This document shows positions 13,650-16,492 of a stretch of 24,876 nt of DNA, piece by piece. The stretch comes from a virus. The DNA lies in IMG/VR virus record IMGVR_UViG_3300032770_000089, positions 1 to 24,876 of that record. One strand, written 5' to 3'. Position numbers and translations under genes: made by a program. The notes under the pieces were generated by a model that had not been told where the DNA came from, ran no database searches, and was given only the letters and a program-made list of their open reading frames with translations. How positions within the stretch are numbered: the first letter of the stretch is position 1; each line of letters starts with the position of its first letter.

Positions 13650-13700
13650 CTACTCCGCGTCGACCTCTTCCTCACCGCCGCCGGGCGTGTCGTAACTCAT
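13650..13700 (-). CDS. Possible 16-residue acidic mini-ORF after the MuF gene
   Basis: The ATG overlaps the MuF stop (ATGA) and encodes MSYDTPGGGEEEVDAE before a stop, immediately upstream of the terminator hairpin. The coupling pattern matches the operon, but the length is too short to be sure. It may be the remnant of a longer gene cut by the cassette 2 insertion. Confidence 0.3.
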   Translation of the reverse strand: MSYDTPGGGEEEVDAE

Positions 13701-16492
13701 CGAGCACCGGCTTCTCGGCAGTTGACAGTTTCGCCGGGGTCCCCTGAGGGATCTCCGGGAAACTGCAACTGCGAGTCCCCGACCTGGAAGGGTTGCTCGA
13801 GCGGGACGGTTTGCCCGTCGAGTCCGTCGTAGAGTTCGTGGCGCGGGTTCGGAGCCCCCGGGGCAGTCAGCCAGCGCTTCGAGTAGGCGTCACCGGTCGC
13901 CTTCGCGACGATCTTGACGGATTCCAGCGACGCCGAATGAACCGTCCGGCCGAGTTCGGTGCGGGCGATCATCCGGGCCCGCCACGGGGCCGCCTCCTTC
14001 ATCCCGGCCCGGATCGCTTTCGCGGTGTCCGGGATCGAGAGGCCGGCGTCGTACGACTCGCCGACGATCCGCATCACGTTCAGCTGGGTCGTGTCGGCGA
14101 TCTCCTTGATCTGCGAGCCGGACTGGGCGAGCAGGAGGCCGGTGAGGGGGTTCGTGATGTCCCAGGCGATCCCGACGCCTTCGATCGTCTGCTTCGTGAC
14201 GGACTCGATGATGGCCTGCCGGGTCGCCTCCGTCTTCTTCTTCAGCGCCTCGACGAGGGCGGTCACGTCGAGGAGTTCGTTCGGGAACGGTGCCGTCCAC
14301 GGCGGCGGCTGGTTCGGCGGCGGGGAGGCGGCCGACAGGGCGGCAAGCCTGCCGGGCTTCGGGACGAAGTCGTTGTTCTCGCGCATCTGCTGCTCCATCG
14401 CCTCCCGCTCGGCGGGCGGGGCGGTGCCGGTGCGAAGCTGCCGGTAGTACGGCCAGTTGATCTGCTGCACGTCGAGGCTCTGCGGCGTGTGGAACTGCAC
14501 CTCGACCGGGTAGCCGTCGAGGCCGCGCAGCACGACGTTCAGGCCAAGGTAGGTGCCTTCCGCGTACCGTGACCCTCCCGACGTGTCTGAGAGCCAGTAG
14601 TTACGGACTCGGTCCGGGGCAAGACCGGCCGCCTCGAGACGCGCCAGCGCGTCTTCTGTGCCGTCGGAATAGCCGTCTGTGTCGAAGACGGCGGTATAGC
14701 GGAGCGCGTCTTTCATGTCGGCGGCGGCGGCCTGTAGCGTCAGCGTCTTCTCGGCCGCGACCCCCGTGATCTTCGCCGCCAATGCCGCGGGGGACTTGCG
14801 GCGATGCTCCAGCCCGGCGAGGGTGCCGCCGCAGTCGGCGACGATCCGGGCGACGGTCTCGGTGACCTTCTCGTCGGCGGCGGCGGCCCGGGCTGCGAGC
14901 GAGGCGGCGAGGCTGTCCGCGTCGTCGCCGCTGATCGGCGGCAAATCAGCCTCGGCGGTCGTCTGCCACCACGGCCGGTCGGCGAGCAGGTCGGCGGCGG
15001 ACGGGAAGTCGCGGCCGTCGAACCGCCAGGCCCGGTCATCGATGTAGGCGATCGCGGTCGGCGGCTTCCGGTCGGTGATCGACATCGGGACGTCCGCGAA
15101 CCCGTTCGCGTTCAGCCAGGAGACCATTGCTTGGACGCCGTCGGGGTCGGCGGCGCGCGCGGAGAAGAGCACGATCTGGAAGTCGGGGGTGAGCGAGCGG
15201 AGCCAGTCGGCGGCGCCGCGGACGGGCGGGTCCTCGACGACCTCGTTCTCCGTGAACCCGGCCTGGTGGGTGTTCAGGACGCCGTCGAAGTCGACCGCGA
15301 CGACTGGCTTCACCGGGCCGACGGAAGCGAATAGCCCCCATTGAGCCACGGCATAGACGATCACCCAGCCGTCCTCTTCCGGACACGTTCCCCTCATCCC
15401 GACCTCGGCATCGTGCTCGACGCGCTCAACGCCATCGACCGCCAGGAAGTCCCCGACGGCCGCCTCGACCTCCTCATTCGTCGTCCAGTCGGCACAGTTC
15501 CAGAAGACCGTCTTCGTCTTGGCGTTCCAGGCGGTGTCGCCGTAGCCGCCGTCGGGGGCGTGCTTCTCCGCGACGCGGCGGATCTCGGAGGTGATCCCGT
15601 CTCCGCCCTCGTCGATCGAAGCGGTGAGCGGCGGGGTGCCGACGAGCGGGATCTCGACGGTCTCGGCGTCGCCGCGAACGACCAGGAGCGCGTCGAAGTG
15701 GAGCGGGCCGCCGACGGCATCGAAGATCCCGGACCGGTCGGTCGGGTCTTCCTCCGGGTCGGCGTAGTCGACGGTCGCATGGGGAAGAAATCCGTGCTGG
15801 CGGCCGTAGTCAATGTCGGCGTCGACGAGCGCCTCGGTGACGACGACGCGAAGCTCGACGAGGCCGGGCACGGACGGGAGCAGGATGATCGGGTGGCCGT
15901 TGCCGTTGTCGTCGAACGCGCCGACGCCGCCGACGACCCCAGCGAGGGGCGCGTGCGCGGCCGCGACGGGGCGGAGCGCCGCCGCGACCGGTTCGAGGTC
16001 GCCGTCGGTCTCGCCCAGATAGGCGAGCGTGACGTGGAGGTTCGCAGGGTCGGCGCCGGTCGCGTCGGCAATCGCGGCGGCCTCGTCGGGGCGCGGCTTG
16101 ACCGCGACCATCGTCGACCGGGACGTGACGCCGCCCGCGGCCTCCACTGCCTCGCTGTAAGCGCGCCGGTCGAGGCGAGGGTTCGCGGGTAGGCCGGTCA
16201 TCCGAAGTTCGCGGAGGAGCGTCTGGGCGCGGACGGGGCCGTGGCAGGCCGCCAGGTCGCGGTGCAGCGCAGCGGTCAGGTGGTCGGTCGCGCGGCGGGA
16301 GAACGCGCGGGCGGCGTCCCGGCCGGCCTTCTCGAGGATCGGCGTCAACTCGGCGACGAGCGTCTCCTCCTTGCCGAGTGCGTCCTCCTGGGCGGCTGTC
16401 AGGACGGCGTTGTGCGACTCGACCCGGTCGGCGTGGCTGCTGGTCGCGGCGGCGAGGCTGCGACGGCTCGTCAGACGTGGACGGCCGGTCAC
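13697..16492 (-). CDS. Giant MuF-type head protein with 2H, HAD and RelA/SpoT-like domains
   Basis: A 931-residue protein starting at a GTG that overlaps the portal stop (GTGA). A helical N-terminus (1-120) precedes a 2H phosphoesterase/LigT-like domain (about 125-285) with both motifs, HVT at 153 and HAT at 238. A small unassigned domain spans about 300-390. A HAD-like domain (395-500) follows, with VAVDFDGVLN, LFSARA and YIDDRAWRF supplying the usual aspartates. Residues about 590-705 (MKDALRYTAVFD, VRNYWLSD, GLNVVLRGLDGYPVEVQFHT) resemble RelA/SpoT-type nucleotidyltransferase modules. The end (740-931) is the MuF head-morphogenesis region (ARTELGRTVHSASLE, GLDGQTVPL, FPGDPSGDPGETVNC). The usual CRC ending is altered to CREAGAR. 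Family calls are from motifs; the fused enzymes may be carried in the capsid and act after injection. Confidence 0.75.
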   Translation of the reverse strand: MTGRPRLTSRRSLAAATSSHADRVESHNAVLTAAQEDALGKEETLVAELTPILEKAGRDAARAFSRRATDHLTAALHRDLAACHGPVRAQTLLRELRMTGLPANPRLDRRAYSEAVEAAGGVTSRSTMVAVKPRPDEAAAIADATGADPANLHVTLAYLGETDGDLEPVAAALRPVAAAHAPLAGVVGGVGAFDDNGNGHPIILLPSVPGLVELRVVVTEALVDADIDYGRQHGFLPHATVDYADPEEDPTDRSGIFDAVGGPLHFDALLVVRGDAETVEIPLVGTPPLTASIDEGGDGITSEIRRVAEKHAPDGGYGDTAWNAKTKTVFWNCADWTTNEEVEAAVGDFLAVDGVERVEHDAEVGMRGTCPEEDGWVIVYAVAQWGLFASVGPVKPVVAVDFDGVLNTHQAGFTENEVVEDPPVRGAADWLRSLTPDFQIVLFSARAADPDGVQAMVSWLNANGFADVPMSITDRKPPTAIAYIDDRAWRFDGRDFPSAADLLADRPWWQTTAEADLPPISGDDADSLAASLAARAAAADEKVTETVARIVADCGGTLAGLEHRRKSPAALAAKITGVAAEKTLTLQAAAADMKDALRYTAVFDTDGYSDGTEDALARLEAAGLAPDRVRNYWLSDTSGGSRYAEGTYLGLNVVLRGLDGYPVEVQFHTPQSLDVQQINWPYYRQLRTGTAPPAEREAMEQQMRENNDFVPKPGRLAALSAASPPPNQPPPWTAPFPNELLDVTALVEALKKKTEATRQAIIESVTKQTIEGVGIAWDITNPLTGLLLAQSGSQIKEIADTTQLNVMRIVGESYDAGLSIPDTAKAIRAGMKEAAPWRARMIARTELGRTVHSASLESVKIVAKATGDAYSKRWLTAPGAPNPRHELYDGLDGQTVPLEQPFQVGDSQLQFPGDPSGDPGETVNCREAGAR

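What the first reader, a model, noticed from the sequence alone, without database searches (positions are those of the whole stretch)
13697..16492. Head protein fused to 2H, HAD and RelA/SpoT-like domains
A MuF-type morphogenesis protein normally ends in a single extra domain, if any. Here at least three enzyme-like domains precede the MuF region in one 931-residue chain. A 2H phosphoesterase, a HAD phosphatase and an alarmone-synthetase-like module packed in the virion could alter nucleotide signalling or RNA ends on infection.
Basis: partly seen in the sequence, partly recalled or inferred. Interest (0 to 1): 0.75.

Follow-up and report, generated by a model that had tools for sequence, protein, structure and literature searches.

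The report
Phage head protein carrying three enzymes
A virus of (probably) actinobacteria makes one long capsid protein that carries three enzyme domains (one that cuts 2',3'-cyclic phosphates, one phosphatase, one that makes alarm nucleotides), and relatives of the virus carry different enzymes at the same spot, which suggests a swappable cargo that may be injected into the bacterium with the viral DNA.

Summary
Window 13697-16492 (minus strand; GTG start overlapping the portal stop) encodes 931 aa: helical N-terminus, 2H phosphoesterase, a small domain X, HAD phosphatase, RelA/SpoT-type synthetase (RSH), MuF. Profiles, template-free AlphaFold2 models and catalytic motifs support 2H and RSH strongly, HAD more weakly (motifs intact, fold match moderate). 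RSH is homologous to Apk2, the (p)ppApp-making toxin domain of prophage MuF proteins, and to SaEAS; core catalytic residues are kept, but two late motif residues are lost, so activity is uncertain. In related phage contigs with the same gene order (portal, MuF, protease) the conserved core is N-2H-MuF. Residues 293-727 are simply absent in the shortest relatives; others carry an ADP-ribosyltransferase between 2H and MuF, or effectors after MuF. The window protein is one state of an exchangeable multi-effector head protein. Among 78 distinct phage RSH proteins it alone has RSH before MuF. MuF-RSH, MuF-2H and multidomain 'polyvalent' phage proteins are already published; the 2H-HAD-RSH combination and the internal cargo slot are new variants. 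Packaging, injection and enzyme activity are inferred, not shown. No Apk2-type immunity genes were found.

The parts
13697..16492 (-). 2H-X-HAD-RSH-MuF protein, 931 aa (P0001)
16139..16492 (-). N-terminal helical region (residues 1-118), conserved in clade relatives
15608..16138 (-). 2H phosphoesterase domain (residues 119-295); H153xT155 and H238xT240
15317..15595 (-). domain X (residues 300-392), homologous to the C-terminal part of a phage AAA+ ATPase-like protein in relatives
   Evidence: weak fold match
14957..15313 (-). HAD phosphatase domain (residues 394-512); D401, D403, S444, K476, D485-D486
14327..14923 (-). RelA/SpoT-type pyrophosphokinase domain (residues 524-722), Apk2/SaEAS-like
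14312..15616 (-). cargo segment (residues 293-727) missing in the shortest relatives: L302 aligns up to residue 292 and resumes at 728 with almost no sequence between
13715..14311 (-). MuF head-morphogenesis domain (residues 728-926)
13650..13700 (-). conserved MuF C-terminal tail found in a different reading frame (frameshift or sequence error at the very end)
16489..18453 (-). portal protein (phrog_776 5.6e-96), overlapping the MuF gene start by 4 nt
9177..11768 (-). capsid maturation protease protein, 863 aa; fused to MuF-2H in other actinophages, separate here
5758..7491 (-). major head protein (phrog_777 2.5e-65)

Best explanation
A MuF-type head protein of an actinophage-like virus whose gene carries an exchangeable enzyme cargo. 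Shown by sequence: the core N-helix/2H/MuF is conserved next to the portal, and the region between 2H and MuF is a variable insertion site that here holds X, HAD and RSH. Inferred: the MuF part places a few copies inside the capsid near the portal, and the chain is ejected with the DNA. Inferred from the families: in the new host 2H opens or cuts 2',3'-cyclic or cyclic-oligonucleotide phosphodiesters (RNA ends or defence signals), HAD removes a phosphate, and RSH transfers pyrophosphate from ATP to the 3'-OH of adenine (perhaps guanine) nucleotides, making (p)ppApp/(p)ppGpp, draining ATP and slowing host synthesis.
For: Domains and motifs. Models: RSH domain mostly pLDDT above 85 (one weak loop) with SaEAS 8vx3 E 4e-9, Z 17.8 over 180 residues; 2H with drCPDase Z 16.5 and E. 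coli LigT about Z 13. Head context: portal, MuF, protease and major head protein in one cluster; portal, MuF, protease in the same order in relatives. Swappable cargo: L302 lacks residues 293-727; L303 and L304 carry an ADP-ribosyltransferase (2.9e-10; 1.1e-10 for the identical L251) between 2H and MuF; L409 has 2H-MuF-...-RSH-DUF3626; L400 and L407 carry ART (and in L400 GNAT) domains after MuF. 2H is fused to MuF, portal or prohead protease in many actinophages. Literature: MuF-Apk2 makes (p)ppApp and is toxic (PMC12226406); MuF toxins proposed to be loaded in heads (PMC5576092).
Against: No virion proteomics and no enzyme assay. RSH lacks the H (24 of 25 relatives) and E/D (22 of 25) of the last motif (W680, R684). 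HAD fold match is only Z 7.0 and the Pfam hit is below its cut-off. The window is a single metagenomic contig; no close copy of the whole protein was found. The extreme C-terminus is out of frame. Domains were modelled in two halves, so their arrangement is unknown.
Confidence: 0.62

Rival explanations
1. The enzymes act late in the producing cell (or on co-infecting phages), not after injection: the protein is made with the head genes, and a protease may remove the cargo during capsid maturation.
For: The gene overlaps the portal gene and lies in the head cluster; a head maturation protease is encoded close by and is fused to MuF-2H in other actinophages.
Against: 2H is fused to proteins that end up inside heads in several unrelated head modules, which is easier to explain if location in the virion matters.
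Confidence: 0.2
2. One or more cargo domains are catalytically dead and serve as binding or structural parts.
For: RSH lacks two conserved residues of the last motif; L014 also lacks the H.
Against: The residues equivalent to those that bind Mg, ATP and acceptor are kept (K566, K574, D595, R598, N652, E664, Q666), and 2H and HAD motifs are complete.
Confidence: 0.2
3. The set is an RNA end-processing tool: 2H and HAD heal 2',3'-cyclic phosphate ends left by host tRNA nucleases, as in RNA repair systems, and RSH is an unrelated passenger.
For: HAD resembles HAD_SAK_2 and, in one family member, HAD_PNKP; T4 polynucleotide kinase-phosphatase is a weak Foldseek match; the contig also has a Ro60 gene.
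Against: No RNA ligase or kinase seen in the window; PMC5512222 argues that polyvalent 2H domains do not travel with RNA ligases; most relatives have 2H without HAD.
Confidence: 0.15
4. The fusion is a sequencing or assembly artefact that joins separate genes.
For: HAD and 2H are often separate genes elsewhere; there is a frameshift at the end of this gene.
Against: N-2H and MuF are fused in relatives at the same place; coding signal is continuous through all joints to residue 900.
Confidence: 0.05

Closest known systems
Apk2 MuF polymorphic toxins (S. pneumoniae, M. haemolytica, P. multocida prophages; PMC12226406)
   Same: MuF domain plus a homologous RSH (p)ppApp synthetase domain with RYT, GxN and (Y,F)H signatures; gene directly after the portal
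   Different: Order reversed (RSH before MuF), three further domains, no IapK or Aph1 homologue in the window
Polyvalent proteins of phages and plasmids (PMC5512222)
   Same: Several effector domains in one chain with virion context; 2H-MuF and RelA/SpoT-MuF fusions are described there
   Different: No HAD-containing case is mentioned in that paper's main text under the terms searched; 2H-HAD-RSH-MuF was not found elsewhere
Exported alarmone synthetase SaEAS, PDB 8vx3 (PMC12691689)
   Same: Closest solved structure to the RSH domain: phmmer 5e-9, Z 17.8
   Different: Secreted by a signal peptide, single domain, not a phage head protein
LigT/CPDase 2H enzymes and anti-CBASS Acb1
   Same: 2H fold and both HxT motifs
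   Different: Closer to CPDase/LigT (Z 13-16.5) than to Acb1 (Z 8.7); substrate unknown
MuF-VIP2 ADP-ribosyltransferase fusions of Microbacterium phages (PMC7302621)
   Same: Enzyme fused to MuF in actinophages; predicted virion component
   Different: One enzyme; no RSH or HAD reported in the passages read
HAD_SAK_2 / T4 PNKP-type HAD phosphatases
   Same: Catalytic motifs; weak profile hits
   Different: Below Pfam's cut-off; fused into a head protein

Membership tests
Apk2 MuF toxin | MuF domain in a head-gene context | tested here: met
Apk2 MuF toxin | adenosine 3'-pyrophosphokinase-type RSH domain with RYT, GxN, (Y,F)H motifs | tested here: met
   signatures from PMC12226406
Apk2 MuF toxin | MuF N-terminal and toxin domain C-terminal | tested here: not met
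   RSH 524-722 precedes MuF 728-926; only case seen among 78 distinct RSH ORFs
Apk2 MuF toxin | followed by immunity genes iapK and aph1 | tested here: not met
   profile search of all window ORFs of 35 aa or more gave only E of 5 and above; contig is a fragment, but the DNA downstream of the gene is present
Apk2 MuF toxin | (p)ppApp synthesis and toxicity | not testable with these tools
   needs assay
RSH/SAS synthetase | SYNTH fold | tested here: met
RSH/SAS synthetase | catalytic D, R, K, E, Q, N residues | tested here: met
   D595, R598, K566, K574, E664, Q666, N652; the K of the VKN motif is R in the window, as in 2 of 25 relatives
RSH/SAS synthetase | last motif H..YE | tested here: not met
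   W680 and R684 in place of H and E; Y683 and R687 kept
2H phosphoesterase | two HxT/S motifs and 2H fold | tested here: met
HAD superfamily | motifs I (DxD), II (S/T), III (K), IV (DD) | tested here: met
HAD_SAK_2 (RNA repair HAD) | curated Pfam cut-off | tested here: not met
   14.1 bits against 27.5
Polyvalent protein | two or more effector domains in one chain in a virion-gene context | tested here: met
Polyvalent protein | delivery into the host | not testable with these tools
   needs virion proteomics or a translocation assay

The most novel reading that the evidence does not exclude
A family of actinophage head proteins has a constant injected part (2H, acting against a nucleotide or RNA-end defence) and a polymorphic slot between 2H and MuF for effectors; in this member 2H, HAD and RSH work together on one target, the ribose 2'/3' position of RNA ends or nucleotides (open cyclic phosphate, remove phosphate, add pyrophosphate).
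Probability: 0.12. Interest if true: 0.8.

Novelty: new variant of a known kind. Interest (0 to 1): 0.56.

Why it matters
It shows in one set of related contigs that the head protein gene next to the portal is a landing site for exchangeable enzymes, with an exactly bracketed short form (L302) for comparison. That makes the open question whether MuF-linked enzymes are really packaged and injected directly testable in cultured actinophages. A 2H enzyme found in at least 148 actinophage records by one query, many of them in or beside head proteins and annotated 'RNA ligase' or not named, is a candidate for a pre-made counter-defence that acts before any phage gene is expressed.

Tried and rejected
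Whole-protein and single-sequence portal searches of viral contigs found no relative; relatives came through a portal DNA motif and then profiles of the N-2H and MuF regions. Alignments A3 and A5 were too divergent for a scan. A single 61-row alignment misplaced the RSH rows, so the protein was modelled in two halves. tblastn of 2H and X alone against named phages found nothing. Domain X against solved structures gives only a weak match (CdsD, Z 6.6), not counted as an identification. tRNA-targeting toxSAS (CapRel) was considered for RSH: it matches the fold (Z 11.3) but less well than SaEAS (Z 17.8). An immunity gene was looked for and not found. An artefactual fusion was considered and judged unlikely because relatives share the N-2H and MuF fusion.

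Full report
Observation. The window is a 24,876-base linear virus record. The gene at 13697-16492 on the minus strand starts with GTG overlapping the stop of the portal gene (16489-18453) and encodes 931 aa. The region encodes portal, protease and major head proteins (phrog_776, phrog_859/18402, phrog_777); portal homologues among named phages are almost all from phages of actinobacteria, so an actinobacterial host is likely but not shown.

Domains. 2H (119-295): PF13563 1.2e-8, both HxT motifs (H153, T155; H238, T240), best structural matches D. radiodurans CPDase (Z 16.5) and E. coli LigT (about Z 13), Acb1 Z 8.7. X (300-392): no named family; homologues lie in the C-terminal part of a probable AAA+ ATPase encoded in the same module of related contigs L298, L299 (near-duplicate), L300 and L301 (the ATPase is my reading of the sequence). 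HAD (394-512): all four catalytic motifs invariant in five aligned sequences, including Leptospira phage LE1, where the HAD domain is fused to an inorganic pyrophosphatase domain; most phage homologues are small proteins. RSH (524-722): region-specific match to the RSH part of NF041399 (2.2e-30), phmmer 5.2e-9 to SaEAS, tblastn to Apk2-type proteins, confident model with SaEAS as best match, Z 17.8. MuF (728-926): phrog_2468 2.7e-29.

Catalytic state of RSH. Over 25 aligned phage relatives K566, K574, D595, R598, T600, E664, Q666, H668, T669 and S672 are invariant and kept in the window; Y648, G650 and N652 are near-invariant and kept. The window has RYT, GxN and FH, close to the signature RYT, GxN, YH that PMC12226406 reports for adenosine 3'-pyrophosphokinases (23 of the 25 relatives also have F; SaEAS, which makes both alarmones, has F in the alignment). 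It lacks the H and E of the last motif (W680, R684). I therefore expect (p)ppApp, possibly with (p)ppGpp, if it is active.

Relatives and the cargo slot. A portal-motif scan and profile scans gave related contigs with the order portal, MuF protein, protease. Their MuF proteins share N-2H and MuF with the window at about 42-60% identity. L302 aligns to residue 292 and resumes at 728 within four bases; L298 within about 16 bases. So residues 293-727, the whole X-HAD-RSH block, are absent there. Other states: plain N-2H-MuF (L297, L301, L302, L306); ADP-ribosyltransferase between 2H and MuF (L303, L304); extra sequence or effectors after MuF (L300, L400, L407, L409); 2H missing (L402); a possible acetyltransferase-like stretch before MuF in a cut contig (L405, by eye only, no Pfam hit); an intein in MuF (L298/L299). 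L409 carries RSH too, but after MuF. The ART of L303/L304 sits slightly further into the MuF helical region than the window's cargo, so the slot is a short region, not one exact point.

Order of RSH and MuF. Among 78 distinct RSH-bearing phage ORFs the median length after RSH is 4 aa; only three have more than 100 aa after it (window, L337, L344), and only the window has MuF after RSH. L337 is MuF-RSH-Zeta toxin with a polynucleotide-kinase-like match, a second multi-effector protein with RSH.

2H in head proteins. A 2H domain lies in MuF-protease fusions, portal fusions or next to the protease in many actinophages; a single 2H query finds 148 records. In actinobacterial genomes 2H is fused to S78 prohead protease or Mu-like protease. 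PMC5512222 had noted 2H fused to MuF or portal and suggested RNase or anti-signal roles.

Mechanism. Shown: domain content, motifs, folds, conserved head context, exchangeable cargo. Inferred: presence in virions, injection, enzyme activities and targets. Apk2-type immunity genes were not found in the window; this is compatible with late expression followed by lysis or with sequestration in heads, but neither was tested.

Comparison with known kinds. It works like an Apk2 MuF toxin with extra enzymes, but it does not meet two of that family's defining features (order, immunity genes), so I do not file it there. It meets the description of a polyvalent protein except for delivery, which was not testable. 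Hence: new variant of a known kind.

Limits. One contig, no duplicate of the full architecture; a frameshift at the extreme C-terminus, natural or technical (relatives have an intact tail); alignments behind the models are shallow (32 and 36 rows) and pTM is 0.46-0.50, so only single domains are to be trusted; the HAD fold match (Z 7.0) is moderate and rests on the motifs.

Noticed in passing
window 19005-19414 (-) and 19556-21145 (-): A Ro60-like (TROVE-vWA) gene (PF25045 3.9e-65) is followed by a stretch that ARAGORN calls tmRNA but Rfam does not; a Y-RNA with a tRNA-like part is possible.
   Followed up: partly
window 11910-13308 (+): Plus-strand insert inside the head cluster, in a stretch of lower GC: a possible nucleotidyltransferase-like ORF (11910-12326, no Pfam hit, by eye) and a 291-aa protein (12433-13308) that looks like a membrane/coiled-coil protein.
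   Followed up: partly
window 13650-13700 (-): The conserved C-terminal tail of the MuF protein is in a different frame from the rest of the gene.
   Followed up: yes
L337:2777-7498: 1574-aa MuF-RSH-Zeta toxin protein with a polynucleotide-kinase-like match, in another phage contig.
   Followed up: partly
L009:1123-3525 (phage Aaphi23) and L298:4538-7963: Intein-like segments inside MuF proteins (PF14890 1.6e-6 and 1.1e-6, below the curated cut-off).
   Followed up: no
L400:4822-10956 and L407:2908-10341: Very long ORFs (2045 and 2478 codons, stop to stop) with 2H-MuF followed by ART and, in L400, GNAT and DUF3626 domains.
   Followed up: partly
L300, L301, L298 (C-terminal part of a probable AAA+ ATPase): Domain X of the window protein recurs on a different protein in relatives, as if it were a portable adaptor.
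   Followed up: partly
L308, L309, L320: 2H fused to prohead proteases of two families in actinobacterial genomes.
   Followed up: partly
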